From Accumulibacter sp. (GTDB lineage Bacteria; Pseudomonadota; Gammaproteobacteria; Burkholderiales; Rhodocyclaceae), in assembly GCA_031266435.1 (NCBI GenBank), contig JAISAZ010000019.1, forward strand, positions 1 to 41,645: DNA of 41,645 bases, read 5' to 3'. The position numbers were made by a program, and so were the translations under genes. The notes below the pieces were generated by a model, which was not told the origin of the DNA, ran no database searches, and worked only from the letters and a program-made list of their open reading frames with translations. This document shows positions 10,945 to 39,472 of this stretch, in pieces (positions within the stretch are counted from its first letter, which is position 1; every line of letters begins with the position of its first letter).

Positions 10945-10950
10945 TAGAAT
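10945..10950 (+). promoter_or_regulatory. probable -10 box of the riboswitch transcript
   Basis: TAGAAT lies about 12 bases before the first recognisable riboswitch base, where a -10 box should be. The -35 region 17 bases further upstream is poor. Confidence 0.45.
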
Positions 10951-10959
10951 TCGTATCAG

Positions 10960-11160
10960 TTTTTGGGTGCTCCGATTGAATCCTTGGATCGGGGTGAAAC
11001 GGGAAGCCGGTGAAGTCGAAGTGTCAGCACACACTCAGACCATTCCGGCGCAGCCCCCCGCTGCTGTAGGCCAGACGACTTCGTCAAAACGCCACTGTGC
11101 AAAGCATCGCATGGGAAGGCGACGAAGAAGGAAGAAGGCAAGCCAGAAGACCGGCCCAAA
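10960..11160 (+). promoter_or_regulatory. cobalamin (adenosylcobalamin-type) riboswitch
   Basis: The conserved blocks of a B12 riboswitch appear in order: GGGTGCTCCG near the 5' end, GGGAAGCCGGTGAAG (about 11000), CCGGCGCAGCCCCCCGCTGCTGTA (about 11045-11068), GCCACTG (11091-11097), GGGAAGGCG (about 11113) and the closing AGCCAGAAGACCGGCC block (11141-11156). High B12 would be expected to shut off expression of the genes behind it, the CbiZ fusion and the first TonB receptor. About 175 bases lie between its end and the first start codon. A terminator or a start-masking hairpin could be there, but I could not identify a clear one by eye. Confidence 0.93.
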
Positions 11161-11335
11161 AATGCTTAGGTGTCCTCGGGGTAGGGGGTTAGCCGGCCGT
11201 CGCGCCAGAAGATGTTTCTCGTTCATCCTTGCACCGCGCCGCGACAACCCGCTTTCGGTTCCACCTCCTGACCGTCCCCTTCCCGTGGACACCGATTTAT
11301 CGAAGCGCAATGCCTCAACAAGGGAAGCGTTCCAG

Positions 11336-12631
11336 ATGGAAGCGACGCGGCACGGAAGTCACACAAGTCTCACCGGAAACTGTTCGGACCCTTCATCGAC
11401 CTCGCGTGACCCCGGCACGCGCTTCTCCGTATTTGCCCGTCGCGCGCTGCTTCTTGCTGTGCTGAATTTCGTCTCAACCGCGCTCCTCGCGGAAGAACGC
11501 TCCGCCGTCCCGCTCCCCGCGAATCTTGCCGCGAGCGCGCAAGTGATCGAAAACGAGCGCGACGGACTCTGGGAAAAAACGCTCGTCGTTTCTTTCCCCG
11601 AAGCGCGTCGGGCGATTTCGACGCAGGAAGGCTTCGTCATCGCGCGCGGCGCGGTCAATCACGCGATGCACCCGCTCCTGTCCCGACACTTCATGAGCGA
11701 CATGCGCGCGTGGGACGTGTATATCGACAGGATTCACGGAAAAATCGCCCGGCGCCTCAAGACGCAACGCCGCCACCTTGCGACGATGGGAACGTCGGCG
11801 GACATGGAAAACCTCGCGGTCGTGACGAAGGAATACGGTCCCTTCACCGTCACCGCGCTCGTCACCGGCGGTGCGGAAACGAACGCGCTCCGCACCGGGC
11901 TCGACGAGGGGACGCACATCGAGACCTCGCACGGAACGATCAACATCCTGCTCTTGACGAACGCGCGCCTCTCCGACGGCGCGATCGCGCGCGCGATCAT
12001 CACCGTCACCGAAGCGAAGACCGCCGCGCTCGAAGACCTGAAGGTTCCCAGCAGCTATACGAAATCCGTGCAGGCGACCGGAACCGGGACCGACGACGTC
12101 ATCGTCGTTTCGGGGACGCGGGGCCCGCGCGTCACTTACGTCGGCGGGCACAGCCGGATCGGCGAATTGATCGGCAAGGCCGCGTACGATGCCGTGATCG
12201 AAGCGCTCGGCAAGCAGAACGGATTTCTGCTCCCGGGCGCGGAAGCCTACGTGACGAAAGGCAGCCTGAAAAAACAGGCCGCGTTCGAATCCGCCGAAAA
12301 ATGGCTCTCGACGCTCGACGACGGCGAACTTGCGGCCGCGTGGGATGCCGCGTCCGCGCTTGCAAGGCGGACGAAAACCCGCGAAGCCTGGGACGAGGCA
12401 TTGACCCAATCGCGCGCCGGCCTCGGAAAGGCGATCGCGCGGAAAACGTCGCGGAATTTGCCGACGCGCGCGATCGACGGCCTGCCGCGAGGCGAATACA
12501 TGCTCCTCGAATTCGTGAGCCGTTTCGAGAACCGCGAGGACCTTGTCGAAAGAATCACCGCGCGCCAAGACGAAGACGGCATCTGGCGCGTCGTCGATTA
12601 TTCGATCGACCGTCAAGAGAGAGAGGATTGA
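11336..12631 (+). CDS. exported CbiZ-type adenosylcobinamide amidohydrolase fused to DUF4019
   Basis: A 431-residue fusion. The N-terminus has a long basic n-region, then a hydrophobic stretch at about residues 35-58 (ARRALLLAVLNFVSTALLAEE), which looks like a signal peptide or membrane anchor. Residues about 65-295 match CbiZ: GGAETNALRTG, HGTINILLLTNARLSDGA, TEAKTAAL, ATGTGTDD (247-254) and GGHSRIGELIGKA. CbiZ cleaves the amide that joins the corrin ring to its lower-ligand tail, so that foreign corrinoids can be rebuilt. Residues about 318-428 match DUF4019 (KWLSTLDDGELAAAWDAAS, then W-x-x-A-L, LPRGEYMLLEF, DGIWRVVDYSI), a domain usually found in secreted proteins. The ATG at 11336 is the last start that keeps the hydrophobic segment; the frame is open into the riboswitch, which is not coding. 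It ends one base before the receptor start. Confidence 0.82.
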   Translation: MEATRHGSHTSLTGNCSDPSSTSRDPGTRFSVFARRALLLAVLNFVSTALLAEERSAVPLPANLAASAQVIENERDGLWEKTLVVSFPEARRAISTQEGFVIARGAVNHAMHPLLSRHFMSDMRAWDVYIDRIHGKIARRLKTQRRHLATMGTSADMENLAVVTKEYGPFTVTALVTGGAETNALRTGLDEGTHIETSHGTINILLLTNARLSDGAIARAIITVTEAKTAALEDLKVPSSYTKSVQATGTGTDDVIVVSGTRGPRVTYVGGHSRIGELIGKAAYDAVIEALGKQNGFLLPGAEAYVTKGSLKKQAAFESAEKWLSTLDDGELAAAWDAASALARRTKTREAWDEALTQSRAGLGKAIARKTSRNLPTRAIDGLPRGEYMLLEFVSRFENREDLVERITARQDEDGIWRVVDYSIDRQERED

Positions 12632-12632
12632 A

Positions 12633-14885
12633 ATGAATTGCCGAAAATTACCATTTCCGGGCGTCGCAACGCTGATCGCGGCGTCGCTCGCGTGCGCGGG
12701 CGCGCGCGCCGACGAAGAACTCGGCGAAGTCGTCGTCTCCGCCGCGCGTTACGAGCAGCGGACGCTCGAAGCGCCCGCGAGCGTCACGGTCGTTTCCTCC
12801 GAGGCGCTCGAAGCGACCGGCGCCGCTCGGCCGACCGACGCCCTGACGGCGAAGGCGCCGAGCTTCTATTGGCGCGGCCCGACGGGGATCGCGGACCGTG
12901 TCAACACCGGGTCGACGCATTCCTTGCGCGGTCAGACGATGACGCGCGTGAAGATCATGCTCGACGGCGTCAGTCTCGCCGACGGCAGCGCGGGGCAGAA
13001 CCGCAGCCTGCTCGGCGTCGAGATGGACGATGTCGAACGGATCGAAGTCGTTCCGGGCGCTTCGTCGGCGCTGTACGGAAGCGACGCGATCGGCGGCGTC
13101 GTCAACATCATCACGAAAGTCCCGACGAAAGAGGAAATCAACGTCAAATACACGCGCGGCTTCGACGAGGTCAAGCGCGATGTCTATTCGGCGAGTTACC
13201 GCAACCGATGGGAAAACGGCGTCGCCGCGTCGTTCAGCGTCGGGTATGAGGACAGGGAAGGTTCGCGGAAGCAGAATCAGGTCTGGTGCAGTACGGTGGG
13301 CAGTACGGCGGCGGCAGCTACATGCCGTTCCTACGCGTCGCGGAATCCCAAGGAGGTTTCGACGAACGCGACGGGGCAGACGACGTATCTGATCGGCGAC
13401 CGTGGCGCGATCCCCTCGCGCGTTTCGCGTGTCAACGGCAAGGTCTTTTACGAACTCGACCCGAAGTCGAGGTTCTACGCCGGCTTCGGCTATTACCAGG
13501 TCAAGCTGGGTTATACGGACTACCACCAGTACGTCAGCGGCGCGCCGGTGGCGGCGTCGAGTCTGTGGAACAGCAGCAACCCGACGTACAACGACGAGCA
13601 CCGCTATTTCGCGGGCTACGACGGCAAACTCGGTCAAAACTTCGACCTGAAGGTCAATTTGAGCTACGCGAAGCAGGATTATTACTACGTCAGCGCGGGA
13701 ACCGTCGCTTCCGGCACGACGCAAGACGGAGGGCCGGGTTCGCAGATCGGCACACCGACGAACAATCTCGAAGGATCGGCGCAGCTCGGCTTCAAGCTCG
13801 GCGAAAAGCAGTATCTGATCCTCGGCGTCTCGTCGGTGCGCAACGAGTTGAACCGCAAGAGCTACAGCGTCTCCAACTGGCGGCATCCCGAAAGCCATCA
13901 CATCCGCATGACGGACCGTACCGACGCCAATAGCCGGATCGACGCGTTTTTCGTCCAGGATCAAATCTCGGTGACGAAGGCGCTGACGCTCTACGCGGGC
14001 GGGCGCTATGACCGCTGGACGACCGACGGCAAACTCTGGAATTCGACGGGGACGCTGAAAACCGACGCGTCGAAGTCGGCGTTTTCGCCGAAGCTCGCCG
14101 CCGTCTACCGCTGGGACGAGAGCTTGAGCTTCCGTACTTCGGTCGGGAAAGCCTTCCGCGCGCCGACGAACAGCGACATGTACAGCCTGAGCCGAAGCTC
14201 CGACACGTCCGGCGCGTCGAACGCGCGCGTCCTCGTTCCCGACGCGGGCGTGAAACCCGAAACGGCGACATCGATCGACTTCGGCGTCGAAAAAGCCTTG
14301 TCGGGGAACGGTGTCGTCAAGGCGGCGGTTTTCCATACCCAGCTCAAAGACATGCTCTACCGCAAGGTTTCCGCTTCCGACGGGAGCTACGACTACCTGG
14401 GCGGCGTCCCGATCACCGAATTTTCGCGGATGACCAACGCCGGAGAGGCGCGCATGAAGGGCTTCGAGTTTTCGGGCGAAGTCCCCGTGACGCCGTGGTT
14501 GCGCGCGCAGGCGAGCTACACCTGGACCGACGCGAAAATCACCAAGGACGATACCGGACTCACGTCGCTCGAAGGCAAGTACGTGATCAACGTCCCGAAG
14601 AACATGGCGAGCGTCGGCTTCGACGCCAAATGGCGCGACTGGTCGGCGAACCTGACGACGACCTACATCGGGCAGATGTACGCGCAGGCGGACAACAGCG
14701 ACCGCGAGAAAAACGTCTTCGGCGGCACGGGAAAATACCGCTTGAGCAATCTGCGTGTCGCGTACCGGATCGACAAGAACTTCAAGGCGACGCTCGCCGT
14801 CAACAACTTGTTCGACAAAAAATACTACGAGTACTATTTGATGCCCGGTCGGAACGTTTCTCTGGAAATTCGCGGTTCGTTTTAG
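12633..14885 (+). CDS. TonB-dependent receptor, BtuB-like (corrinoid uptake candidate)
   Basis: Outer-membrane receptor of 750 residues. A signal peptide (1-26, ending GARA before DEELGE) is followed by a TonB box (GEVVVSAAR) and a plug domain (APASVTVVSSEAL to ALYGSDAIGGVVNIITK). A 22-strand-type barrel follows, ending in an aromatic strand with SLEIRGSF. The ATG is one base after the CbiZ stop, so both genes share the B12 riboswitch. That is the main reason to propose cobalamin, cobinamide or another corrinoid as substrate. It is clearly paralogous to the next receptor: both share EKAL(S/P)GNGVVKAA, KDMLYRK and SNW/SDW-RHP. In the plain family view it is a BtuB/FepA-type receptor; substrate is inferred from regulation. 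Confidence 0.87.
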   Translation: MNCRKLPFPGVATLIAASLACAGARADEELGEVVVSAARYEQRTLEAPASVTVVSSEALEATGAARPTDALTAKAPSFYWRGPTGIADRVNTGSTHSLRGQTMTRVKIMLDGVSLADGSAGQNRSLLGVEMDDVERIEVVPGASSALYGSDAIGGVVNIITKVPTKEEINVKYTRGFDEVKRDVYSASYRNRWENGVAASFSVGYEDREGSRKQNQVWCSTVGSTAAAATCRSYASRNPKEVSTNATGQTTYLIGDRGAIPSRVSRVNGKVFYELDPKSRFYAGFGYYQVKLGYTDYHQYVSGAPVAASSLWNSSNPTYNDEHRYFAGYDGKLGQNFDLKVNLSYAKQDYYYVSAGTVASGTTQDGGPGSQIGTPTNNLEGSAQLGFKLGEKQYLILGVSSVRNELNRKSYSVSNWRHPESHHIRMTDRTDANSRIDAFFVQDQISVTKALTLYAGGRYDRWTTDGKLWNSTGTLKTDASKSAFSPKLAAVYRWDESLSFRTSVGKAFRAPTNSDMYSLSRSSDTSGASNARVLVPDAGVKPETATSIDFGVEKALSGNGVVKAAVFHTQLKDMLYRKVSASDGSYDYLGGVPITEFSRMTNAGEARMKGFEFSGEVPVTPWLRAQASYTWTDAKITKDDTGLTSLEGKYVINVPKNMASVGFDAKWRDWSANLTTTYIGQMYAQADNSDREKNVFGGTGKYRLSNLRVAYRIDKNFKATLAVNNLFDKKYYEYYLMPGRNVSLEIRGSF

Positions 14886-15000: not shown

Positions 15001-17283
15001 ATGGACAGGCGACTTTATGCTATTGTAGTGGGAGGTGGGTGGCTGTTCGTGACGCTTGGCGGCGCAGACGCTCGCGCGGATGAAAGACTCGGAGACCTGG
15101 TCGTGACGGCTTCGCGGATCGAGCAGAGCACGCTGGAAGCGCCCGCGAGCATGACGGTCATCAGCGCCGACAAGATTGAGGCGTCGGGCGCCAAAAGCGT
15201 CGGCGAAGCCTTGAGCGCCCGCGTTCCGGGTTTTTTGAGCTATCACGATTACGGCGTCCATTCGCATTCGCCGCAGTTTTCGCTTCGCGGAATGGGCGAC
15301 GGGCGGACGAAGGTGATGCTCGACGGGATCAGCCTCGTCGACGGTTACAACGGCGGGACGGCCAATATGATCGGCATCACGATGAGCGATATCGAGCGCA
15401 TCGAGGTCGCTCCGGGCGCGACGTCGGCGCTTTACGGCAGCGACGCGATCGGCGGCGTCGTCAACATCATTTCAAAAGTGCCGGACAAGCGCGAAATGCG
15501 TGGGCGTTACCTGAAGGGCTTCAACGACCTCGCGCGCGACGAATACGAGGTCAGCTACCGCGACGCCTGGGAAAACGGCCTTGCGGCCTCCGTCAGCGTC
15601 CGCTACCTCGATTTCGACGGGTATAACGATACTTACGTGACCGCTTCGCCGGGGTCGGGCTCAGGTACTCCTGTCACCGGTGCGCGTCCGACGACGACGA
15701 ACTTGGGCGCGCCAGCGTATATCATCGGCGACAAGGGGCGTACGCCGGCGACGGCGCTCTATTTCAACGGAAAACTCTATTATAAGCTCGACGCAAAATC
15801 GAAGTTTTTCGCCGGGCTTCGCTATGTGAAGACCGAGCGCGATTACTCGCATTTCAACAGCTACCTGCGCGACGCGAGCGGCTCCGTCGTCAATCCGGGG
15901 TCGGGTACCACCTACGTCACCACGCCGTCGGGTGAAAGGCTGAGTCTGACAAAGACTGGGTTCTGGAATACAGTTGCGCCGAGTCAGCGCGAGGAAAAGC
16001 ACTACCATGCGGGCTACGACGGCAAGGTCGGGGACGATTTCGACTTGAAGGCCACGATCAATTATACCGATATCAAGTACTGGAGCACGAGTGCCGGCAG
16101 CGTGACCGCGACGACTTTCGACGGCGGCCCCGGAACGCAGACGAGCTCGCCGAACCAGACCCTGGAAGGCGTCGCGCAGTTGGGGCGAAAGCTCGGCGAG
16201 AAGCATTACTTCCTCGCGGGCGTCTCGATGAGCAAGGCGAAGATGGACAGCCGGATCTGGTCGGTCAGCGACTGGCGCCACCCACAGAACACGCACCTCA
16301 GCATAAACGATCAGATGAAGGGCGAGAGCATGCTGAAAGCGGTTTTCTTCCAGGATCAGTATTTCGTGACCGACGCGCTGACGCTTTACGCCGGCGCGCG
16401 TTATGATAAATGGGAGACGAGCGGTCTCAACAACCGCTACGCCGCCGCGCCTTTCGGGACTTTCGTCTCGCCGCAACGGAAAGAAAACGCGATTTCCCCG
16501 AAGCTCTCGGGCGTCTACCGCGTCTCGGATACGCTGACCTTGCGCAGCTCGGTCGGTTCGGCCTTCCGCGCGCCGACGAACTACGATCTCTACGCGAATA
16601 TCAGGACGATGTCGTATCTCCTGATGATGTCGGACCCGAACCTGAAACCCGAAAAGGCCACTTCGTGGGACGTCGGCGTCGAAAAAGCGCTCCCCGGAAA
16701 CGGCGTCGTCAAGGCGGCGGCGTACGTTTCGCGGATCAAGGACATGCTCTATCGCAAACGCACGCCGTATGACGGCGCTTATGGCGTATATTACACTGGA
16801 GCAAGCACACCAATGTATTCTACTATGGCAAATGCCGCGCGCGCGAAGGTCCAAGGGATCGAGCTTTCCGGCGAAATTCCGGTCGCGTCGTGGCTGCGCG
16901 CGTCGGCGGGCTATTCCTACACCGACGCCAAAATTACCGACGACGAGTCCGGCGCGGGGCTCGAAGGAAAGCGCGTCCCTTATATTCCGAAACATTTGTT
17001 CAATGTCGGCCTCGACGCGAAATGGCGCGAATGGCGCGGCTTCCTGTCGGCCGTTTACGTTGGCGAGCGATACGCCACCGACGCGAACAATGACGTGAAA
17101 AAATACGTCCCCGGTGCGCTCAGCGACAGATACTGGCTCGCCAACCTGCGCGTGAGCTACCAGATCGACCGGAATTTCCAGGCGGCGTTCATCGTGCATA
17201 ATCTGTTCGACAAAGAGTATTACACTTCGAACGAGCTTGCGCCGGGTCGGAGCGCGGCGATTCAGCTTCAGGCGTCGTTCTAG
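15001..17283 (+). CDS. TonB-dependent receptor, probably iron-regulated (heme/HmuR-like candidate)
   Basis: Outer-membrane receptor of 760 residues. The signal peptide ends near residue 27 (GADARA before DERLGD). A TonB box (GDLVVTASR), plug domain (ISADKIEASGAKS to ALYGSDAIGGVVNIISK) and barrel follow, ending QLQASF. The ATG at 15001 has a purine-rich leader (AAAAAGGGGACGGGAATCAA) and restores the signal peptide; earlier starts do not. A Fur-type box directly upstream suggests induction when iron is scarce. It is a diverged paralog of the preceding receptor and sits before the ExbB, DUF2149 and CobN-like genes. A heme or other metal-tetrapyrrole substrate is plausible; cobalamin remains possible because of the riboswitch-controlled neighbour. 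Confidence 0.85.
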   Translation: MDRRLYAIVVGGGWLFVTLGGADARADERLGDLVVTASRIEQSTLEAPASMTVISADKIEASGAKSVGEALSARVPGFLSYHDYGVHSHSPQFSLRGMGDGRTKVMLDGISLVDGYNGGTANMIGITMSDIERIEVAPGATSALYGSDAIGGVVNIISKVPDKREMRGRYLKGFNDLARDEYEVSYRDAWENGLAASVSVRYLDFDGYNDTYVTASPGSGSGTPVTGARPTTTNLGAPAYIIGDKGRTPATALYFNGKLYYKLDAKSKFFAGLRYVKTERDYSHFNSYLRDASGSVVNPGSGTTYVTTPSGERLSLTKTGFWNTVAPSQREEKHYHAGYDGKVGDDFDLKATINYTDIKYWSTSAGSVTATTFDGGPGTQTSSPNQTLEGVAQLGRKLGEKHYFLAGVSMSKAKMDSRIWSVSDWRHPQNTHLSINDQMKGESMLKAVFFQDQYFVTDALTLYAGARYDKWETSGLNNRYAAAPFGTFVSPQRKENAISPKLSGVYRVSDTLTLRSSVGSAFRAPTNYDLYANIRTMSYLLMMSDPNLKPEKATSWDVGVEKALPGNGVVKAAAYVSRIKDMLYRKRTPYDGAYGVYYTGASTPMYSTMANAARAKVQGIELSGEIPVASWLRASAGYSYTDAKITDDESGAGLEGKRVPYIPKHLFNVGLDAKWREWRGFLSAVYVGERYATDANNDVKKYVPGALSDRYWLANLRVSYQIDRNFQAAFIVHNLFDKEYYTSNELAPGRSAAIQLQASF

Positions 17284-17399
17284 GGGTGGGGGTTTCGAGC
17301 CGCGCTTCGCCGCGCGCTTGAAGCAGGGTTGAATTTTTCAACAGAGAAGCCGTCGGCGCGGTGCGTCGGCGGCGACCAGGAGAAAGGCAGGGAGAGGGA

Positions 17400-18014
17400 A
17401 TGGACCTCATTCGTTTTTTGGAGCAGGTGCTTTACGAAGTCTCCACGGCGCTCTACATGCCGGTCATCGCAGGGTGCGTGCTGGTGATCGTCTATACGCC
17501 GCTTTGCCTTGGGATGACGCTTTACGAGGCTTGGCAGCGCCGGCGAAAACACTTCCCGGATCGCGAAGCCTTTGAAGAACGCCTGCGCCGGCTCGAAAAA
17601 GACCTGCGCACGCACCCGAAGAACCTCGAAATCGAGGTCGAGCGCCTGCTTCAGGCCGAAGAACTGAGTTTGTCGCGTAGCCTCGACCGCGTTCGTTTCG
17701 TCATCCGCGTCGGCCCGTCGCTCGGTTTGCTGGGCACCCTGATCCCGATGGGAATTTCGCTTTCCGCGCTGGCGCAGGGGAATATTCCTGAAATGGCGGG
17801 GAATATGGTGACCGCGTTTACGACGACCGTCGCGGGTCTCGGCGCGGGGACGCTGGCGTATCTGATCGCCTTGTCGCGCGAACGCTGGGCGCGCGAAGAC
17901 CTCCGCGAAATGGCGCACTCCGCCGAACTCGCGCTGATCGCGCAGGAAAGCAGCGGTGCCGCGCCGCGACATTTACAGGAGGAGGCCGACGATGCGATTG
18001 CTGCGGCGGCGTAG
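17400..18014 (+). CDS. MotA/TolQ/ExbB-family proton channel protein
   Basis: Inner-membrane protein of 204 residues with three helices: about 15-40, about 98-120 (VGPSLGLLGTLIPMGISLSAL) and about 130-155 (NMVTAFTTTVAGLGAGTLAYLIA). The Thr-rich third helix and the GPSLGLLGTL motif are typical of ExbB/TolQ, which use proton flow to drive a partner in the periplasm. The ATG at 17400 follows AGGGAGAGGGA. It overlaps the next gene by 23 bases, so the two are translated together. Together with DUF2149 and a CobN-like gene this matches the gene set of the Bacteroidetes hmu heme locus. No TonB gene lies in the window. Confidence 0.87.
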   Translation: MDLIRFLEQVLYEVSTALYMPVIAGCVLVIVYTPLCLGMTLYEAWQRRRKHFPDREAFEERLRRLEKDLRTHPKNLEIEVERLLQAEELSLSRSLDRVRFVIRVGPSLGLLGTLIPMGISLSALAQGNIPEMAGNMVTAFTTTVAGLGAGTLAYLIALSRERWAREDLREMAHSAELALIAQESSGAAPRHLQEEADDAIAAAA

Positions 18015-18348
18015 GCGACTCGGCCTCGACGGCGGACAGCCGCTCGAAGACCCGATTTCGGGCGTGGCGAATCTGTTCGACGCGAGCGTCGTTTTCATCG
18101 TCTCGATGATGATCGCGCTCTTCATGGCGTACAACATGATGGATCTCCTGGACCCGAATTCCGAAGTCACGATGATGAAGAAGAACGCGAAGGGCGAACT
18201 CGAAATCATCACGAAGAAGGGCAACGAAATCAAGGCGTCGAAAGTGACCGACCAGAAACTTTCCGGGCGCGGAGAACGCCTCGGAACGGCGTACCGACTC
18301 GCCGACGGACGGATCGTCTATGTCCCGACCGACTCCGGGACCGAGTGA
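17992..18348 (+). CDS. DUF2149 protein, possibly an ExbD-like partner
   Basis: A 118-residue protein with a short basic N-terminus, one membrane helix (about 30-52, NLFDASVVFIVSMMIALFMAY) and a small periplasmic domain that ends YRLADGRIVYVPTDSG. An Asp just at the start of the helix is placed like the essential Asp of ExbD and TolR. The topology (N-in, one helix, small outer domain) is also the same. I infer that it forms a motor with the ExbB-like protein. The ATG at 17992 follows AGGAGGAGG, a strong ribosome-binding site. It ends 1 base before the GTG proposed for the CobN-like gene. Confidence 0.83.
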   Translation: MRLLRRRRRLGLDGGQPLEDPISGVANLFDASVVFIVSMMIALFMAYNMMDLLDPNSEVTMMKKNAKGELEIITKKGNEIKASKVTDQKLSGRGERLGTAYRLADGRIVYVPTDSGTE

Positions 18349-18349
18349 A

Positions 18350-21300
18350 GTGCGCGTCGCTCTGAGCTTTGTCCGCCGCGTCGCGGCGCTGGCGGGTCTT
18401 CTCTTTTGCGCCTTCGCGTACGCGAAGCCGCTTTCGGTGGCGATCATTCCGGGGAACTCGTCGATGCAGCCGACGATCGCTGCCGTCAAGCAGTTGAAGG
18501 CGCAAGAAAAAGCGCTCGAAGACGTGCGCTTCCACGTTCTGCCGACCGGCCTCGAAGAGCGCCACAAAAAAGCGCTCGCCGACGCCGACGTTGCGCTCGT
18601 CCATAATATGGGGCGCGAGATCGCCGCCGCCGTGACGGCGCCGGTGCGCGAGATGGCGCGGCGCGGCGCGAAAGCCTACGCCGTCGGCGCGCCGTTCGAA
18701 GAAGGCGAAAAAAAGGCGGGGCTGACGCGCGACGACGAACTCCGCGCGTATACGCAGGAAGGCGGCGTCGAAAACATCGCCGCGATGATCAAACGCCTGC
18801 TCGCGCGCGACTTCGGCTTCGATTTCGAAGTCGGCCCGCCGAAGGTATTTCCGCGCGAAGGACTCTGGAATCCCCGGACGGGGAAAATGTACGAGCGCTT
18901 CGAGGACTACGCGGCGGATTACTTCAAAGAGCGCCCCGATGGGCGCGGCCACGTCTGGGTCGCGATCATGTTTTACCGCAACATGGCGATGGGCGGGGAT
19001 TCGCCGCTTTTGCAAAGCCTCACCGACGCGCTCGAGAAGCGCGGTTTCAACGTCCTGCCCGCCTTCGGCTACCCGCCCGACGCGCTCGTCCAAAAAATGT
19101 TGCTCAGCCCGGAAGGAAAGCCGCGCGTCGCCGCCGCCGTCTCCTTCGTCTTCAAGATGGGCGGGTCGCCGAAAAAGACGACCACCGCCTTGCAGGAACT
19201 CGGCGTGCCGGCGATCAACGTCATTTCGCTCCAGAATCAGTCGCAGGAGGAATGGGAAGCGTCGCCGCTGGGGCTGACGCTCCCGGAGCGCGCGTGGCAG
19301 GTCGCCATTCCCGAACTCGTCGGCGCGATCGCGCCGACCGTCGTCGCCGCGAAAGAAGTCCGGCGCGACGAAGAGAGCGGGTTTGAATACGTCCTGGAAG
19401 TCCCGATCGACGAACGCGTCGAGCGCGCGGCAGACCGCGTCAAGAAATGGGTCAGCCTGCGCTACGAACTCAACCGGAACAAGCGCGTCGCGCTCCTCTA
19501 CTACAACTATCCGCCCGGAAAGGAAAACATCGGCGCGTCCTACCTCAACGTTCTGCCGAAGTCCTTGTGGCAGATTCTGCTTCGCCTGGAACGCGAAACA
19601 TACGACACGACCGGGCGCCCCGAAAGCGCGGAAGCCCTTTTCGAACTCTTGCGCGAGCACGGCGCCAACATGACCTCCCTGACTCCGGGCGCGCTCGAAA
19701 AGATGGTTCGCGGCGGCCACGTCGTTTTATGGCCGGTTTCCGAATACAGGAAGGCGTTCGACAAACTCCCCGAAAAGCTCCGCGACGGCATGATCCGGGG
19801 CTGGGGCGAGCCGGAAAACTTCAAGTTCATGCTCTGGCGCGACAAAAAAGGCAAACCCTATTTCGTCTTCCCCGCGCAGCGCTTCGGCAACGTGCTTTTC
19901 GCGCCGCAGCCCACGCGCGGCTGGGGCGAGGACGTTGCGAAAATGTACCACGATGTCACGCTGCCGCCGCATCACCAGTACCTCGCGTTCTACCTCTGGC
20001 TGCAAAAGGAATACAGGGCGCACGCGATGGTTCATGTGGGGACGCACGCGACGCACGAATGGCTTTCCGGCAAGGAAATCGGCTTTACCGCCGCTGACCC
20101 CGGCGAGGTGATGGTCGGCGACGTGCCGCAAGTCTATCCGTATATCGTCGACGATGTCGGCGAGGCGATCCAGGCCAAGCGGCGCGGCATGGCGACGATC
20201 GTCTCGCACATGACGCCGCCTTTCACGGTTGCGTCGCTGAACAAGGAGCTGACGATGCTTCGCGGCCTCATCGATGATTACGTCGTCTCCGCGCAGAAAA
20301 ACGAAGCCGCCGCCGACGCCAAACGCGCGGAGGTCGCCGCGCTCGCCGAAAAACTCGGCGTACTCAAGGACATCGGCAAGAAATCGCTGGAAAACGGAGA
20401 GGACGTCGAGGTGCTCGAACACTATCTGAAAGAGGTCGGTGAAGAAAAGTCGCCCTACGGCCTTCATACCTTCGGCGTCGCGCCGCCCGAAGAGCTTCGC
20501 CGGAGCACGGCTGAAGCTATTCTGAGTGTCGGCGGTGAACTCATCCCCGAAGAACGCGAACGCCGCATCGCCGAATTGTCCGCGACGATCGAAGCGTCCG
20601 CCAAGGCCGAACTCGACGCGCTCGTTGCAGGGCTTGCGGGGCGCTACATCACGCCCGGTCCGGGCGGCGACCCGATCCGCAACCCGGATTCGCTGCCGAC
20701 GGGCCGCAACCTCTATGGCTTCGACCCGACGCGGATGCCGTCACCGGGCGTCTGGGCGCGCGGCAATGCCCTCGCGGACAAATTCATCGCCGACTACCGA
20801 AAAGCGCACGACGGCGAATTCCCCGACCGCGTCGTCTTCAACCTCTGGATGACCGAAGCGATGCGGCACGAAGGCGTCACCGAGAGCGAAATCCTCGCGC
20901 TGATGGGTGTCAAACCCGTGTGGAGCGAGCGCGGGCAACTCGGCGGGGTCGAGGTCATCCCGCGTGCCGAACTCGGCCGTCCGCGCGTCGACGTCACCGT
21001 CGTTCCGTCCGGTCTCTACCGCGACGCGCTGCCGAGCCTGATGCTTTTGATCGACGAAGCGGTCAGCAAGGTCAAGGACCTCGACGAGGACGACAACCCG
21101 ATCTACGCCAACGTCGTGAAGACGGCACGCGCGCTCGAATCGCGCGGCGTCGCGCCCGAAGACGCAAAGCGCATGGCGGCGGTGCGGATATTCACCGAGG
21201 CGTCGGGCGCGTACGGAACCGGAATCAACAACGTCATCCAGGCGAGCAATACCTGGGAGGACGACGGAAAGGTCACCGACGTTTATTTCAACCGCGTCGG

Positions 21301-22411
21301 CAACCTCTTCGGCCAGGGCTACTGGGGAGAGTCTCCGGGCGGCAAGGCGCTCGCCGTCGATATTTTCAAGATGGCGTTGAAAGACGCCAAAGCCGCGATC
21401 CACGCGCGATCGAGCAATCTGTACGGAACGCTCGACAACGACGACGTTTTTCAATACCTCGGCGGGACGGCGATGGCGATCCGGCAACTCAACGGCGGCA
21501 AATCGCCCGAAACCTACATTCTCAACCTCTCCGGCGCGCAGGGCGCGGAAAAGCACGAAACGCTCGACAAATTCATCGGACGCGAAATGCGTACCCGCTA
21601 CACGAACCCGGAGTGGATCAAGGGAATGATGAAGGAAGGCTATTCGGGCGCGCGCGCCGTCATGGAAGTTACCCATAACCTCTGGGGCTGGCAGGTGACG
21701 ACGCCCGAAGCGGTCGACGGCGCCAAGTGGCAGGAAATGTATGAAACCTACGTGACCGACCGGAACGAACTCGGAATCAAGGAAATGTTCCGAGAATCCA
21801 AAAACATGCTCGCGTACCAGTCGATGGTCGACAAAATGCTCGTCGCGGTCAACAAGGGCTACTGGCAAGCCGACGCCGACGTGAAAGAGCGCCTGGAAAA
21901 ACTCAACATCGAACTGATCGCCGAAGCCGGCGTCGCGTGCGACGCGGCATCGTGCAGCAGCGCGGAAGTCGTCGCGCTCGGAGAAGCCGCCGACGCGCAA
22001 GCGATGGCGGACGCCGCGAACATGCCGGCGCCGAATGTCGCCGCGATGACCGGAGGCGTCGCGCCGCGCGCGGGATCGCCCTCTGCGGCACGCTCCGCGC
22101 CCGCGCGGAGCGCCGCCTCATCGCCGCAGGGCGCCGCGCCCGCAAGGAACGCGCCGCCGCCTCAGGGCGCGGCCACCCCTCCCCCCGCATCCGCAAATCC
22201 CCCGACGCCCGCAACACCTCCCGCGCCGACGCAGGTCGAAGGCTTCGAAGTCCAGGAAGTTCCCAAGCCCTCCGTCAACATGACGCCGGAAGAAAAAAGT
22301 CGGGCGATCCTGGGATTCGTCTTCCTCGTCTGCGCCGGCTTCTTCCTCCGCTCGCGGCGCGAAAGAAGGCTTGAAATGCTCGATTATGAACTACCCTGCC
22401 GAGCCGCATAG
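18350..22411 (+). CDS. CobN-like chelatase, exported and membrane-anchored (HmuS-like)
   Basis: A large chelatase-type protein of 1353 residues. CobN is the big subunit of aerobic cobaltochelatase; relatives include BchH/ChlH and HmuS. Here a signal peptide (1-24, RRVAALAGLLFCAFAYA before KPLSVAII) precedes the catalytic region. The CobN signature HVGTHATHEWLSGKEIG starts at about 562, with His566 and His569. A C-terminal Pro/Ala-rich linker (about 1227-1300) leads to a membrane helix (about 1317-1333) and a basic tail. The catalytic body should therefore be periplasmic. The GTG at 18350 is chosen because it starts the signal peptide and sits 1 base after the DUF2149 stop; an in-frame ATG at 18320 is also possible. 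No CobS/CobT ATPase genes are nearby. C1197 and C1202 form a CxxxxC pair. Role proposed: metal insertion into, or removal from, an imported tetrapyrrole. Confidence 0.85.
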   Translation: MRVALSFVRRVAALAGLLFCAFAYAKPLSVAIIPGNSSMQPTIAAVKQLKAQEKALEDVRFHVLPTGLEERHKKALADADVALVHNMGREIAAAVTAPVREMARRGAKAYAVGAPFEEGEKKAGLTRDDELRAYTQEGGVENIAAMIKRLLARDFGFDFEVGPPKVFPREGLWNPRTGKMYERFEDYAADYFKERPDGRGHVWVAIMFYRNMAMGGDSPLLQSLTDALEKRGFNVLPAFGYPPDALVQKMLLSPEGKPRVAAAVSFVFKMGGSPKKTTTALQELGVPAINVISLQNQSQEEWEASPLGLTLPERAWQVAIPELVGAIAPTVVAAKEVRRDEESGFEYVLEVPIDERVERAADRVKKWVSLRYELNRNKRVALLYYNYPPGKENIGASYLNVLPKSLWQILLRLERETYDTTGRPESAEALFELLREHGANMTSLTPGALEKMVRGGHVVLWPVSEYRKAFDKLPEKLRDGMIRGWGEPENFKFMLWRDKKGKPYFVFPAQRFGNVLFAPQPTRGWGEDVAKMYHDVTLPPHHQYLAFYLWLQKEYRAHAMVHVGTHATHEWLSGKEIGFTAADPGEVMVGDVPQVYPYIVDDVGEAIQAKRRGMATIVSHMTPPFTVASLNKELTMLRGLIDDYVVSAQKNEAAADAKRAEVAALAEKLGVLKDIGKKSLENGEDVEVLEHYLKEVGEEKSPYGLHTFGVAPPEELRRSTAEAILSVGGELIPEERERRIAELSATIEASAKAELDALVAGLAGRYITPGPGGDPIRNPDSLPTGRNLYGFDPTRMPSPGVWARGNALADKFIADYRKAHDGEFPDRVVFNLWMTEAMRHEGVTESEILALMGVKPVWSERGQLGGVEVIPRAELGRPRVDVTVVPSGLYRDALPSLMLLIDEAVSKVKDLDEDDNPIYANVVKTARALESRGVAPEDAKRMAAVRIFTEASGAYGTGINNVIQASNTWEDDGKVTDVYFNRVGNLFGQGYWGESPGGKALAVDIFKMALKDAKAAIHARSSNLYGTLDNDDVFQYLGGTAMAIRQLNGGKSPETYILNLSGAQGAEKHETLDKFIGREMRTRYTNPEWIKGMMKEGYSGARAVMEVTHNLWGWQVTTPEAVDGAKWQEMYETYVTDRNELGIKEMFRESKNMLAYQSMVDKMLVAVNKGYWQADADVKERLEKLNIELIAEAGVACDAASCSSAEVVALGEAADAQAMADAANMPAPNVAAMTGGVAPRAGSPSAARSAPARSAASSPQGAAPARNAPPPQGAATPPPASANPPTPATPPAPTQVEGFEVQEVPKPSVNMTPEEKSRAILGFVFLVCAGFFLRSRRERRLEMLDYELPCRAA

Positions 22412-23795: not shown

Positions 23796-23953
23796 CATCA
23801 GAGGACAGGAGGCAGAGGACGGAAGACAGAGCGGCCTTCGGCCTTTGTAGTCAGGTATCAGTAATCCGAGGGAGGCAGTCACGCGACAACAGACGACTGA
23901 AAACAGATCACAAAGCGAGCGCTCTGTCATCTGTCTTCAGTCCTCAGTCTTCT
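23796..23953. mobile_element. MITE-like element, copy 1
   Basis: About 158 bp with imperfect inverted ends made of GAGGACAG/GAAGACAGA words at the left and TCTGTC/TTCAGTCCTC at the right. It carries a small GGCCTTCGGCC hairpin and the core CAGTAATCCGAGGGAGGCAG. It is near-identical to 24366-24540. It begins right after the transglycosylase stop and ends exactly where similarity to a HigB-type toxin begins (23954). Confidence 0.65.
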
Positions 23954-24082
23954 TACTGCACGCTGGTCGAGAAACGCATCGTGATGCTACACAGCTTCAT
24001 CAAAAAGACAGACAAGACGCCGGTAGACGAGTTGCGGATCGCCGTATTACGAATGAAGGAAGCTAAAAATGTTGACGCATGA
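23954..24082 (+). pseudogene. truncated RelE/HigB-type toxin, C-terminal remnant
   Basis: The last about 40 codons of a HigB/Gp49-like mRNA-cleaving toxin: VEKRIVMLHSFIKKTDKTP, then DELRIAVLRMKEAK. The LHxFxKKTxKTP motif is the characteristic C-terminal end of this family; full-length members are about 100-120 residues. The N-terminal two thirds are missing and replaced by the repeat element ending at 23953. An ATG at 23984 could still yield a 32-residue peptide, but it would lack the toxin fold. It overlaps the antitoxin start by 14 bases, the normal toxin-first arrangement. Confidence 0.72.
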
Positions 24083-26908: not shown

Positions 26909-28459
26909 ATGGGAAACACTGAGAAAGACATTGCCACGCTGCTTGAAAAACGTAAGCTGGCAATGCTAGGTGGGGGTCAAAAGCGCATTGACGACCAGCA
27001 TAAGAAAGGCAAAAAAACCGCGCGCGAACGTATCGATTATCTCCTGGACCCAGGCTCGTTCCATGAATTTGGAACCTACGCCACCCACAGTCTGACGACT
27101 TTTGGTCTCGACAAGCAACGCTTCATCGGCGACGGCGTCGTGACCGGCTTCGGCAAGATCGGTGGGCGTCCCGTGGCTCTTTTCTCGCAGGACTTTACCG
27201 TCATGGGCGGTTCGTTCTCCGAAGTCCAGTCGCAAAAGATCAGCCGTATTGCCGACAAGGCGCTCGACGCCGGCATTCCCCTGATCGGTATCGGCGATTC
27301 GGGCGGCGCGCGTATTCAGGAAGGTGTCCGCAGCCTCGCGGCCTACGGTGAAATTTTCGTCCGTAACGTCATGTGCTCCGGTGTCATCCCGCAGCTCCAG
27401 ATCATCCTTGGCCCGTGCGCCGGCGGCGCGGTGTATTCGCCGGCTCTGATGGACTTCATCGTCATGGCGGGAACGAGCTATATGTTCCTGACGGGGCCGC
27501 AAGTCATCAAGACGGTGACGGGCGAAGAAGTCACGACGGAAGACCTGGGCGGCGCGGCCGTTCATACGGGGACCAGCGGCGTTGCGCACCTTGCCGCCGA
27601 AACCGAAGAAGAAGGCCTCGACCTCATCAAGAAACTCCTGACCTATCTGCCGCAAAACAACAACGAAGAACCCGCTCCGGTCGCCACGGACGATTCGATC
27701 GAACGTCAGGAAGTATCGCTGAACACGCTGATTCCCGACGATCCGAATTCGCCGTACGACATCCGCGACGTGATCAGCCAGGTCTTCGACCGCGACAGCT
27801 TCTTTGAAATCCAGCCCGACTGGGCGGCCAACGCCGTCGTCGGTTTCGCGCGGATGGAAGGTCGCTCCGTCGCCGTCATCGCCAATCAGCCCAGCTTCAT
27901 GGGCGGCGCGCTCGACATCAATTCGAGCGACAAGATCGCGCGCCACGTCCGTATCGCCGACGCTTTCAACATCCCGATCGTCACCTTCGTCGATTGTCCG
28001 GGATTCCTGCCGGGAACCGGCCAGGAATACGGCGGCGTCATCCGTCACGGCGCGAAGATCCTCTACGCTTACTGCGAAGCGACGGTACCGATGGTCTCGA
28101 TCGTCACACGCAAAGCCATGGGCGGCGCCTACCTCGCGATGAACTCGCGTCAGATGCGTTCCGACCTGACTTTCTCGTGGCCGTCGGGCCAGATCGCCGT
28201 CATGGGCGCCGAAGGCGCGGTCAACATCCTGTACATGAAGGATATCAAGGAAGCCGCGGATCCCAAGGCGCGCAAGGCCGAGATCATCGAGTCCTACCGC
28301 GAGGAATTCCTGAATCCGTACCGCGCGGCCGACGTCGGTCAGACCGACGACGTGATCGTACCGAGCGAAACGCGTCCGCGCCTCGCGCGCGCGCTCGAAG
28401 TTCTGCGTACCAAGGTCACCCAGAACCCGCCGCGTAAACACGGTTTGATGCCGGTTTGA
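26909..28459 (+). CDS. mmdA: methylmalonyl-CoA decarboxylase alpha subunit (carboxyltransferase)
   Basis: Moves the carboxyl group of (S)-methylmalonyl-CoA to the biotin of the carrier subunit, releasing propionyl-CoA. The 516-residue carboxyltransferase has the usual two crotonase-like halves. The N-terminal half includes GIGDSGGARIQEG and GPCAGGAVYSPAL. The C-terminal half includes FVDCPGFLPGTGQEYGG and KAMGGAYLAMNS. The same fold is used by the beta subunit of propionyl-CoA carboxylase. The downstream OadG-, BCCP- and OadB-type genes identify it as a decarboxylase. It is the first gene of four, with a GGAGGG ribosome-binding site. Expected location is the cytoplasm, bound to the membrane subunits. 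Confidence 0.92.
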   Translation: MGNTEKDIATLLEKRKLAMLGGGQKRIDDQHKKGKKTARERIDYLLDPGSFHEFGTYATHSLTTFGLDKQRFIGDGVVTGFGKIGGRPVALFSQDFTVMGGSFSEVQSQKISRIADKALDAGIPLIGIGDSGGARIQEGVRSLAAYGEIFVRNVMCSGVIPQLQIILGPCAGGAVYSPALMDFIVMAGTSYMFLTGPQVIKTVTGEEVTTEDLGGAAVHTGTSGVAHLAAETEEEGLDLIKKLLTYLPQNNNEEPAPVATDDSIERQEVSLNTLIPDDPNSPYDIRDVISQVFDRDSFFEIQPDWAANAVVGFARMEGRSVAVIANQPSFMGGALDINSSDKIARHVRIADAFNIPIVTFVDCPGFLPGTGQEYGGVIRHGAKILYAYCEATVPMVSIVTRKAMGGAYLAMNSRQMRSDLTFSWPSGQIAVMGAEGAVNILYMKDIKEAADPKARKAEIIESYREEFLNPYRAADVGQTDDVIVPSETRPRLARALEVLRTKVTQNPPRKHGLMPV

Positions 28460-28503
28460 TAGGGAGTGGTTTTTTTGTTCAACTTTTACAGTGAGGGATG
28501 TTA

Positions 28504-28884
28504 ATGCACACAGAATATTTTGCCTGGGGTCTGAAAATGACCGTCATTGGCATGGGCTTGGTCTTTGCCATGCTGGGCGTGCTGTGGGCCTTGCTTACGA
28601 TCATTCTGATGCTCGACAAGCCTGAGGAGGAAGAAGAAGAATCCTCAGCGGCGTCGGCGTCGGAAGAGGCCGAAGCAGACGAACCAGCAAGCCAACCGGC
28701 GAGTACCGGTCTGCCAGCAGACCTGGTTGCCGCGATCACCGCCGCGGTGGTCAAACACAAGGCGGCGTTGCTGGGAGGTTCCGCGCCGATCATGCGTACT
28801 ACGTGGTCAGGGAGTCAGCAAAGCAATTGGGTTATCGCTGGCCGTGCACGTCAAACTAACACTTGGACTCCGAGAGGGAAATAA
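28504..28884 (+). CDS. mmdD: methylmalonyl-CoA decarboxylase delta subunit (OadG family)
   Basis: A small membrane subunit (126 residues) that holds the complex together. One helix (about 13-36, VIGMGLVFAMLGVLWALLTIILML) is followed by an acidic Glu/Ala-rich linker (40-65) and a short C-terminal domain (LVAAITAAVVKHKAALL to TWTPRGK) thought to dock the carboxyltransferase. The ATG at 28504 is preferred to the in-frame ATG at 28498 because the GAGGG ribosome-binding site at 28493-28497 is too close to the first. The stop overlaps the next start by one base. Confidence 0.85.
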   Translation: MHTEYFAWGLKMTVIGMGLVFAMLGVLWALLTIILMLDKPEEEEEESSAASASEEAEADEPASQPASTGLPADLVAAITAAVVKHKAALLGGSAPIMRTTWSGSQQSNWVIAGRARQTNTWTPRGK

Positions 28885-29366
28885 TGCGTCGTTATACTTT
28901 GAATGTTAACAGCACCGAGTTTGTGGTCGATGTTCAGGAAACCAGTGGTGACCAATACGAGGTGTCGGTGGGTGGCCAAACGTATGCCGTAAGTCTGGCC
29001 GGCGAACAATCCGTCGCTACCGCGGCTGCGGCGGCTCCGGCTCCCGCACCTGCCGCGGCGCCCGCGGCTGCCGCTCCGGCGCCTGCGGCGGCTCCCGCAG
29101 CCGCGCCCGCTCCGGCGGTTCGCAAGGCTCCGGCCGGCGGTGGCAAGGGTGGCTCCGTGAAGGTCCCGATGCCGGGTACCATCCTCGAAGTGAACGTCAA
29201 ACCGGGCGACAAGATCGAGCGCGGTCAACAAGTCGCCATCCTCGATGCGATGAAGATGAAGAACAAGATTGGCGCGCCGAAAGCCGGCGTCGTCGCCGAT
29301 GTTCATGTCGCTCCAGGTCAAACCGTTGCGCACGGCGAGGTGATTGTAACCTTCAAGGAGGACTAA
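28884..29366 (+). CDS. mmdC: biotin carboxyl carrier subunit of methylmalonyl-CoA decarboxylase
   Basis: Carries CO2 on biotin between the alpha and beta subunits. The 160-residue protein has an N-terminal domain (1-45), a flexible Ala/Pro linker (46-80) and a biotinyl domain (90-160). The motif DAMKMKN (121-127) makes Lys124 the biotinylated residue. The linker is built of AP/AAP repeats, as in Veillonella and Propionigenium carriers. The ATG at 28884 overlaps the mmdD stop (TAATG) and follows GAGAGGGAA; a TTG further upstream (28863) is rejected. A biotin ligase must act on it; none is encoded in the window. Confidence 0.92.
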   Translation: MRRYTLNVNSTEFVVDVQETSGDQYEVSVGGQTYAVSLAGEQSVATAAAAAPAPAPAAAPAAAAPAPAAAPAAAPAPAVRKAPAGGGKGGSVKVPMPGTILEVNVKPGDKIERGQQVAILDAMKMKNKIGAPKAGVVADVHVAPGQTVAHGEVIVTFKED

Positions 29367-29367
29367 C

Positions 29368-36972: not shown

Positions 36973-36987
36973 TTCGTTCCTCATTGC

Positions 36988-39168: not shown

Positions 39169-39472
39169 TGCAGCACCTTTCACTGAGTAAAAAAAATGGG
39201 AGGTATCCTTATCGATATGAATGCCCGATCCCGGATTTTGCCCCGAGGAACTCCGGCTCCATTCTTCTGTTTTTGAGAATGCCTCTTGAACTCATAATGC
39301 TACTTTATCCACGGCGCGGAGGCAAGGAAAACAGCGTTTTTCAGCCCAAAAAATGAGGTGTTTCAAGGCCGACGGACGAGACGCTGCCCAATGCCGCGTA
39401 AATCATCAAACGGCGCCGCAAAAAACAGCCGGGAACGAGGAGGGGGCGCGTCGCCACGGGCGATGAAATTCC

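What the first reader, a model, noticed from the sequence alone, without database searches (positions are those of the whole stretch)
15001..22411. Candidate periplasmic tetrapyrrole chelatase/dechelatase system: TonB receptor, ExbB-like, DUF2149 and exported CobN-like protein
Seen: a CobN-family protein with an N-terminal signal peptide and a C-terminal membrane helix, packed behind an ExbB-like gene and a DUF2149 gene (overlap of 23 bases, then 1 base), downstream of a receptor. No CobS/CobT or other chelatase ATPase is present. Known: CobN is normally cytoplasmic and works with ATPase subunits. The Bacteroidetes heme locus hmuRSTUV has the same kinds of genes, and its CobN-like HmuS has been linked to anaerobic heme iron release. 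Inference: this block is a betaproteobacterial version in which a proton-driven motor powers metal removal from (or insertion into) a tetrapyrrole in the periplasm.
Basis: partly seen in the sequence, partly recalled or inferred. Interest (0 to 1): 0.85.

Follow-up and report, generated by a model that had tools for sequence, protein, structure and literature searches.

The report
B12-controlled periplasmic CobN-like salvage operon
A bacterium related to 'Accumulibacter' carries a vitamin-B12-switched set of genes that looks built to capture B12-like molecules and work on them just outside the inner membrane, using an exported relative of the cobalt-inserting enzyme CobN next to a proton motor; related gene sets are known, but what this one does to B12 is untested.

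Summary
In detail: receptor, ExbB-like, DUF2149 and an exported, C-terminally anchored CobN-family protein lie where stated. The heme reading does not hold. The operon starts earlier, with a strong cobalamin riboswitch (10948-11173, 115 bits), a CbiZ-DUF4019 protein with a leader (11336-12631) and a second receptor. The CobN-like protein lacks three HmuS hallmarks (His-Gly-Arg, His1209, Met-rich insertion) but keeps the general chelatase His/Glu (33 of 33 in its clade). CobS and CobT gave no hit in the genome. It belongs to a well-supported clade outside the HmuS, CobN and BchH sequences tested. In that clade 13 of 29 assessable loci have a B12 riboswitch within 7 kb upstream; neighbours include exported CbiZ, cbiM and cobalamin-synthesis genes. 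The predicted fold matches CobN and HmuS equally well. Best reading: a periplasmic corrinoid-salvage system whose CobN-like subunit acts on the corrin metal centre, possibly removing cobalt. That reaction is inferred, not shown. Prior art: BtuS; riboswitched hmu-like operons of Bacteroides; the pSZ77 cobN cluster. Verdict: new variant of a known kind.

The parts
10948..11173 (+). cobalamin riboswitch (RF00174), head of the operon
   Evidence: 115.1 bits, gathering score 31.5, E 1.1e-28, model 1-189 of 189; 162 bases before the cbiZ ATG
11336..12631 (+). CbiZ (adenosylcobinamide amidohydrolase) fused to DUF4019, probably exported
   Evidence: CbiZ 5e-47 over positions 2-191 of 191, DUF4019 2.4e-25; hydrophobic stretch ALLLAVLNFVSTALLA read by eye as a signal peptide
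12633..14885 (+). TonB-dependent receptor 1
   Evidence: Plug and barrel domains; 1-base spacer after cbiZ; a 75% identical receptor stands beside a CbiZ with a leader in L173, a genome of the same genus
15001..17283 (+). TonB-dependent receptor 2
   Evidence: Plug and barrel domains; none of the 25 NCBIfam models shown reached its cut-off
17400..18014 (+). ExbB/TolQ-like proton-channel subunit
   Evidence: MotA_ExbB 1.3e-13
17992..18348 (+). DUF2149, small membrane-anchored protein (ExbD-like by analogy with HmuV)
   Evidence: PF09919 3.9e-32; alignment of 31 homologues
18350..22411 (+). exported, C-terminally anchored CobN-like protein (BtuS-type), 1353 aa
   Evidence: PF02514 1025 bits; the only PF02514 gene found in the genome; alignments and trees; AlphaFold model of residues 27-1215, pLDDT 87.9, pTM 0.84

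Best explanation
This is a B12-riboswitch-controlled corrinoid-salvage operon working in the periplasm. The two receptors bring cobamides across the outer membrane. Exported CbiZ cuts off the aminopropanol-nucleotide arm, leaving a cobyric-acid-like corrin. The exported CobN-like protein binds that ring in its chelatase cavity, and the ExbB/DUF2149 proton motor drives its cycle in place of the CobS/CobT ATPase. The most likely chemistry is action on the metal centre, most probably release of cobalt (or of a wrong metal) from corrinoids, with Co2+ then imported by a CbiM-type system. Shown: the sequences, the riboswitch, linkage, conserved residues, predicted fold, no hit for CobS and CobT. Inferred: location, substrate, motor coupling and reaction. 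My estimates: corrinoid substrate 0.85, periplasmic 0.9, cobalt removal 0.35, energised hand-over without metal chemistry 0.35, insertion or exchange 0.15.
For: Riboswitch at the head of the operon. Eight riboswitches in the genome, by eye one before a methylmalonyl-CoA mutase gene and one before a cbi cluster. CbiZ in the operon. In the clade, a riboswitch within 7 kb upstream of exbB in 13 of 29 assessable loci, against 1 of 14 class-2 loci with upstream sequence (Fisher p 0.016, or 0.033 leaving L055 out) and 0 of 7 further class-2-like loci (L176, L183-L188). CbiZ in 8 of 65 scan loci plus a 34-residue fragment, with a leader by eye in 6 and a binding-protein/CbiZ fusion in one, although CbiZ is rare: 2 of 250 genomes of the order and 7 of 121 of the family, own genome included. 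B12 or cobalt genes other than cbiZ in 7 of 37 clade loci. His566, Glu605 and Asp1032 in 33 of 33. Predicted class I chelatase fold; the C-terminal domain matches CobN entry 9fpc at 31% identity and rmsd 2.0.
Against: 16 of 29 assessable clade loci show no riboswitch within 7 kb upstream. Gallionella, Methylomonas and Verrucomicrobia subdivision 3 loci show no B12 gene among the 17 queries. In L055 the riboswitch stands before a ribonucleotide reductase gene. L072 also holds a CobN of the canonical branch, to which its B12 genes may belong. CbiZ with a leader and a receptor occur without a CobN-like gene in the stretch (L173, L174), and CbiZ with a leader in L175, so the CobN-like step is separable. 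Promoter-like matches inside the region exceed shuffles (6 against 2.7, sd 1.6), one ending at 17202 before exbB, so riboswitch control of the whole block is not certain. The genome seems to have a BtuB/BtuCD/BtuF set and de novo synthesis (names partly by eye). Destroying corrinoids when B12 is short would be odd logic. Asp at 1032 is also usual in class 2 (14 of 16). The fold does not separate CobN from HmuS.
Confidence: 0.5

Rival explanations
1. Corrinoid uptake only: the CobN-like protein is a periplasmic corrinoid-binding and hand-over protein, driven by ExbB/DUF2149, with no metal chemistry.
For: B12-riboswitch control is typical of uptake genes (recalled); receptors stand in the operon; BtuC- or BtuF-type domains stand near the block in L076, L111 and L177.
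Against: The chelatase His/Glu pair is kept in 33 of 33, more than binding would need; the genome already has two FecCD permeases above cut-off.
Confidence: 0.35
2. Metal insertion or exchange: the protein puts cobalt into metal-free or wrongly metallated corrins scavenged from outside.
For: Same direction as canonical CobN; cbiM or cbiQ near several blocks; metal-free hydrogenobalamin was isolated from a Chromatium strain according to PMC7693184 (passages); insertion into exogenous cobalamin was speculated for Chlorobaculum tepidum (PMC8620254, passages).
Against: No CobS or CobT, which canonical CobN needs; metal-free corrins are probably scarce; cobalt would have to be kept in the periplasm.
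Confidence: 0.15
3. Heme dechelatase, a betaproteobacterial HmuS.
For: HmuS is the best PDB sequence match (502 bits against 424 for CobN) and second by fold (E 1.2e-73 against 1.0e-74 for CobN 7c6o); same kinds of neighbours; both receptors score best, below cut-off, with heme-receptor model TIGR01785.
Against: B12 riboswitch and CbiZ in the operon; His-Gly-Arg, His1209 and Met-rich insertion absent; Met79 position kept in 20 of 33 of the clade; the one HmuS in the trees lies outside the clade.
Confidence: 0.05
4. Canonical aerobic cobaltochelatase subunit CobN.
For: Pfam and NCBIfam models of CobN match; CobN 7c6o is the first fold match.
Against: Below the cut-off of all 9 NCBIfam models matched; no CobS or CobT hit; N- and C-terminal hydrophobic segments; outside the canonical CobN branch; an anaerobic-type cbi cluster is present (by eye).
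Confidence: 0.02

Closest known systems
BtuS family (CobN-like; Rodionov 2003 as cited in PMC6460266, passages read; the 2003 paper not seen)
   Same: Third type of CobN relative, predicted exported and membrane-anchored, linked to metalloporphyrin salvage.
   Different: B. fragilis BtuS1/2 were studied for heme iron; here the operon has a B12 riboswitch and a CbiZ with a leader.
Cobalamin-riboswitched hmu-like operons of B. fragilis NCTC 9343 (PMC10100974, passages)
   Same: Two receptor copies, no HmuY, riboswitch directly upstream; authors suggest cobalamin metabolism.
   Different: Bacteroidota; no CbiZ mentioned in the passages I read; its sequence was not fetched or compared.
hmuYRSTUV / HmuS heme dechelatase (PMC12583661: outline, passages, introduction, two structure sections, first part of discussion)
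   Same: Receptor, ExbB, DUF2149 and anchored CobN-like protein with His538/Glu577 equivalents; L117 shows the gene set in B. finegoldii.
   Different: No HmuY; His254, His1209 and Met-rich insertion missing; B12 control.
cobN-TonB cluster of Geobacter (Trichlorobacter) lovleyi plasmid pSZ77 (PMC3403914, passages)
   Same: 49% identical CobN-like protein, same ExbB-DUF2149-CobN order, next to cobalamin genes, riboswitch matches upstream. The authors report no CobS/CobT homologues and a cobalamin-related but unknown role.
   Different: No CbiZ match in the stretch examined; DUF2162 present.
Zur-regulated PA1922-PA1925 of Pseudomonas aeruginosa (PMC4542158, passages)
   Same: Receptor, CobN-like, ExbD-like and hypothetical genes. 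I take my class-2 loci to be this type from gene order; the PA genes were not fetched.
   Different: Order receptor-CobN-ExbB-DUF2149 in class 2; zinc response; a B12 riboswitch in 1 of 16 class-2 loci.

Membership tests
HmuS heme dechelatase | heme ligands Met79 and His254-Gly-Arg | tested here: not met
   Met-Gly present in the window but Met in 20 of 33 of the clade; His-Gly-Arg absent
HmuS heme dechelatase | LSLDHxxEFMGG motif with His1209 | tested here: not met
   window LDNDDVFQYLGG, Asp1032 at that place
HmuS heme dechelatase | methionine-rich insertion | tested here: not met
   HmuS residues of about 693-893 have no counterpart in the alignment
HmuS heme dechelatase | catalytic His538/Glu577 (superfamily-wide) | tested here: met
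   His566 and Glu605, 33 of 33 in the clade
canonical cobaltochelatase CobN | CobS and CobT partners | tested here: not met
   no hit for PF06213 or TIGR01650 in the own genome, 95.8% complete
canonical cobaltochelatase CobN | cytoplasmic | tested here: not met
   N- and C-terminal hydrophobic segments, by hydropathy only
canonical cobaltochelatase CobN | NCBIfam equivalog cut-off | tested here: not met
   885 bits against a cut-off of 1248 for the best model
class I chelatase large subunit | fold | tested here: met
   Foldseek: CobN 7c6o E 1.0e-74 (TM 0.80), HmuS 9d26 1.2e-73 (TM 0.82), ChlH 6ytj 6.1e-62 (TM 0.71)
BtuS-type CobN-like protein | exported, anchored CobN relative in a TonB-type operon | tested here: met
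   definition taken from PMC6460266
BtuS-type CobN-like protein | grouping with B. fragilis BtuS1 or BtuS2 in a tree | not tested
   only one Bacteroides protein (L117, hmu type) was in the trees
CbiZ amidohydrolase | full-length CbiZ domain | tested here: met
   PF01955 positions 2-191 of 191, 5e-47
CbiZ amidohydrolase | cleavage of adenosylcobinamide to cobyric acid | not testable with these tools
   needs an assay
cobalamin riboswitch | RF00174 above gathering score | tested here: met
   115.1 bits against 31.5

The most novel reading that the evidence does not exclude
A proton-motive-force-driven corrinoid decobaltase: exported CbiZ strips the nucleotide arm and the anchored CobN-like protein, driven by ExbB/DUF2149, takes cobalt out of the corrin ring in the periplasm, so that cells can mine cobalt, or clear unusable corrinoids, from the B12 analogues around them. 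I know of no demonstrated enzymatic cobalt removal from a corrin (recalled; one library search for such terms, listed four papers, none on such an enzyme judging by titles and abstract starts).
Probability: 0.3. Interest if true: 0.9.

Novelty: new variant of a known kind. Interest (0 to 1): 0.6.

Why it matters
In the records I read, CobN-like genes of this kind are annotated as cobaltochelatase. Part of this clade, in several phyla, is tied to B12 riboswitches and to CbiZ with a leader. That points to a periplasmic stage of corrinoid processing outside the salvage route I know (CbiZ as a cytoplasmic enzyme, recalled). It offers a direct test of whether a proton motor can replace an AAA+ ATPase in a class I chelatase, and of how one module came to serve heme, zinc and B12.

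Tried and rejected
Heme reading: rejected on operon head and residues. The Met79 match to HmuS was dropped as a clue because it is not conserved in the clade. Three Fisher tests were made: one search used a wrong control (0 of 14) and is not used; one search used 1 of 16, but two of those 16 (L039, L042) lack upstream sequence; one search uses 1 of 14 and is the one cited. With the 7 further class-2-like loci counted as assessable it gives p 0.003. None corrects for relatedness; four of the 29 clade loci are Methylomonas. In one search assessable loci include L079 and L115, which were not in the tree, and 9 loci with a block starting within 5 kb of the locus end were left out. From the tree I set aside L036 and L037 (same contigs as L065 and L088), L061 and L079 (thinning, or cut by the contig end), L075, L039, L102, L113 (short) and L108 (overlong). 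The first tree attempt timed out. A regular expression for riboswitches missed known ones and was abandoned. The co-occurrence of CbiZ and DUF2149 in 121 family genomes (5 of 7 against 27 of 114, p 0.014) is not used as support: in G298 and G353 the DUF2149 found is not a clade-type block beside CbiZ (L176, L179). L181 and L182 are the same contigs as L057 and L056 and are not counted twice. The AlphaFold job for the CobN-like domain finished late; its fold search does not separate CobN from HmuS. The DUF2149 structure was never obtained. A search for a 2024-2026 paper on corrin sites of CobN listed none. The family search with the protein itself failed; family models were used instead.


Full report
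WHAT IS THERE. The operon is longer than described. It begins with a cobalamin riboswitch at 10948-11173 (RF00174, 115.1 bits, full length, E 1.1e-28). Then come a CbiZ-DUF4019 protein at 11336-12631 with a hydrophobic leader, a first receptor at 12633-14885 after a 1-base spacer, the second receptor at 15001-17283, and the ExbB-DUF2149-CobN block. The largest gap between genes is 116 bases. Terminator-like patterns are not clearly above shuffles (20 against 17.3, sd 4.9), but promoter-like ones are (6 against 2.7, sd 1.6), one of them ending at 17202 shortly before exbB, so a single riboswitch-controlled transcript is likely but not shown. The gene before the riboswitch, a phosphofructokinase, runs the other way.

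GENOME. The assembly is 2.66 Mb in 121 contigs, 95.8% complete. The closest named relative is a MAG titled Accumulibacter sp. Gx485_bin129, 95% identical in the CobN-like protein. There is one PF02514 gene and no hit for CobT or CobS; ChlI/ChlD-type ATPases were not searched. There are 8 cobalamin riboswitches; by eye one precedes a methylmalonyl-CoA mutase gene, one a cbi cluster and one a tonB-exbB pair. Two FecCD permeases pass the cut-off, one beside a receptor, CobO and CbiA, the other near a BtuF-like protein (names by eye). The window itself carries methylmalonyl-CoA mutase and MeaB. So the cell apparently makes and imports B12 already, and this operon is an addition.

THE COBN-LIKE PROTEIN. 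HmuS is its best PDB sequence match (502 bits), then CobN (424) and ChlH (418). An AlphaFold model of residues 27-1215 (33 sequences, pLDDT 87.9, pTM 0.84) matches CobN 7c6o (E 1.0e-74, TM 0.80) and HmuS 9d26 (1.2e-73, TM 0.82) about equally, then ChlH (TM 0.71); the C-terminal domain fits CobN entry 9fpc (31% identity, rmsd 2.0) and ChlH fragments. So the fold does not decide the substrate. Against HmuS: the Met79-Gly80 pair is present in the window, but Met occurs there in 20 of 33 clade members; His254-Gly-Arg is absent; the Met-rich insertion has no counterpart; His1209 is replaced by Asp. His566 and Glu605, equivalents of HmuS His538 and Glu577, are kept in 33 of 33, and an extra His569 in 32 of 33. 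At the His1209 place, 8 of 9 canonical CobN have Asp (Gly in one), 2 of 3 BchH have His (Gln in one, L133, which I class as BchH from its bch neighbours although its record calls it CobN) and the Bacteroides HmuS has His. Asp is also usual in the class-2 set (14 of 16: 15 class-2 proteins and L089) and among Methanosarcina relatives (10 of 14), so it speaks against a porphyrin-type site more than for a corrin one.

TREE. A FastTree tree of 85 proteins puts the window in a 33-member group with support 1.0, with loci titled Rhodocyclales genera, Gallionella, Methylomonas, Deltaproteobacteria, Nitrospira and Verrucomicrobia. An IQ-TREE run of 47 of these recovers the group with SH-aLRT 100; the one HmuS lies outside with its own position unresolved (17), and several splits inside are weak (22, 25, 46). 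Canonical CobN and BchH are elsewhere.

NEIGHBOURHOOD. ExbB-DUF2149-CobN order is kept in the clade loci whose fetched stretch covers all three genes, except L072, where other sequence lies between. Riboswitches lie within 7 kb upstream of exbB in 13 of 29 assessable clade loci, including Methylacidiphilum, several Deltaproteobacteria and the T. lovleyi plasmid; 16 have none, and in L055 the riboswitch precedes a ribonucleotide reductase gene. Among 16 class-2 loci (receptor-CobN-ExbB-DUF2149), 14 with upstream sequence, one (L049) has a riboswitch; Fisher p 0.016, or 0.033 without L055. Seven further class-2-like loci have none. Relatedness is not corrected for. Among 17 B12-related queries, matches other than CbiZ stand in 7 of 37 clade loci (L058, L060, L066, L067, L072, L076, L116), in 1 of 16 class-2 loci (L049) and in 1 of 29 other loci (L050); L072 also holds a canonical-branch CobN.

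CBIZ WITH A LEADER. CbiZ homologues occur in 8 of the 65 scan loci plus a 34-residue fragment in L066. A leader is visible by eye in L052, L053, L055, L058, L060 and L078; L111 is a periplasmic-binding-protein/CbiZ fusion; L077 is unclear; a second copy in L058 has no leader. In the family sample a CbiZ with a leader also stands with a 75% identical receptor in L173, in a riboswitched cluster with receptor, BtuC, CobO and CbiA in L174, and 3 kb after a riboswitch in L175, each without a CobN-like gene in the stretch; the genome of L175 has a class-2-like one elsewhere (L176). CbiZ is rare: 2 of 250 genomes of the order, 7 of 121 of the family, own genome included.

HOW IT MOST LIKELY WORKS. 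The riboswitch makes this a B12-shortage operon. Receptors import cobamides; CbiZ trims them; the CobN-like protein handles the bare corrin; ExbB/DUF2149 supplies energy. Kept catalytic residues, the HmuS precedent (PMC12583661) and cobalt-transport genes near some blocks (L058, L066, L116) favour metal chemistry, and among the options removal of cobalt or a wrong metal. Regulatory logic and the existing Btu system speak as well for energised hand-over. I hold removal and hand-over about equal and commit to removal as the reading to test first. The late fold result did not change these odds.

PRIOR ART. BtuS as a third CobN type is credited to Rodionov 2003 in PMC6460266 (passages; the 2003 paper not seen). 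Riboswitched hmu-like operons in B. fragilis were noted in PMC10100974 (passages). pSZ77 cobN without cobST was judged cobalamin-related in PMC3403914 (passages). The Zur-regulated PA1922-1925 genes are in PMC4542158 (passages). Searches listed 4 of 4 papers, 20 of 30, 15 of 112, 2 of 2, 2 of 2 and 12 of 17. Among those listed, from titles, abstract starts or passages read, none describes an exported CbiZ paired with an exported CobN-like protein; unlisted papers were not seen, and the library holds only openly licensed ones.

Noticed in passing
L111:5275-7323: Fusion of a periplasmic binding protein domain (Peripla_BP_2) with CbiZ in a deltaproteobacterial MAG, an independent hint that CbiZ can work outside the cytoplasm.
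   Followed up: partly
window 35962-39183 (-) and 26909-30492 (+): Methylmalonyl-CoA mutase with MeaB, and a Na+-pumping decarboxylase beta subunit after an ORF that looks by eye like a carboxyltransferase: B12-dependent propionate metabolism on the same contig.
   Followed up: no
L174:6720-14941 (-): Riboswitched cluster of receptor, BtuC, CobO, CbiZ with a leader and CbiA, without a CobN-like match.
   Followed up: partly
L086, L087, L096: Firmicutes CobN-like genes with an ExbB-like neighbour and a B12 riboswitch match upstream; a separate branch of the tree.
   Followed up: no
L048:6998-7890: DUF2149 and ExbB-like genes without a CobN-like match in the 17-kb stretch.
   Followed up: no
window 23881-23958: Near-palindromic stretch matched by a plant microRNA model on both strands far below its gathering score.
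   Followed up: no
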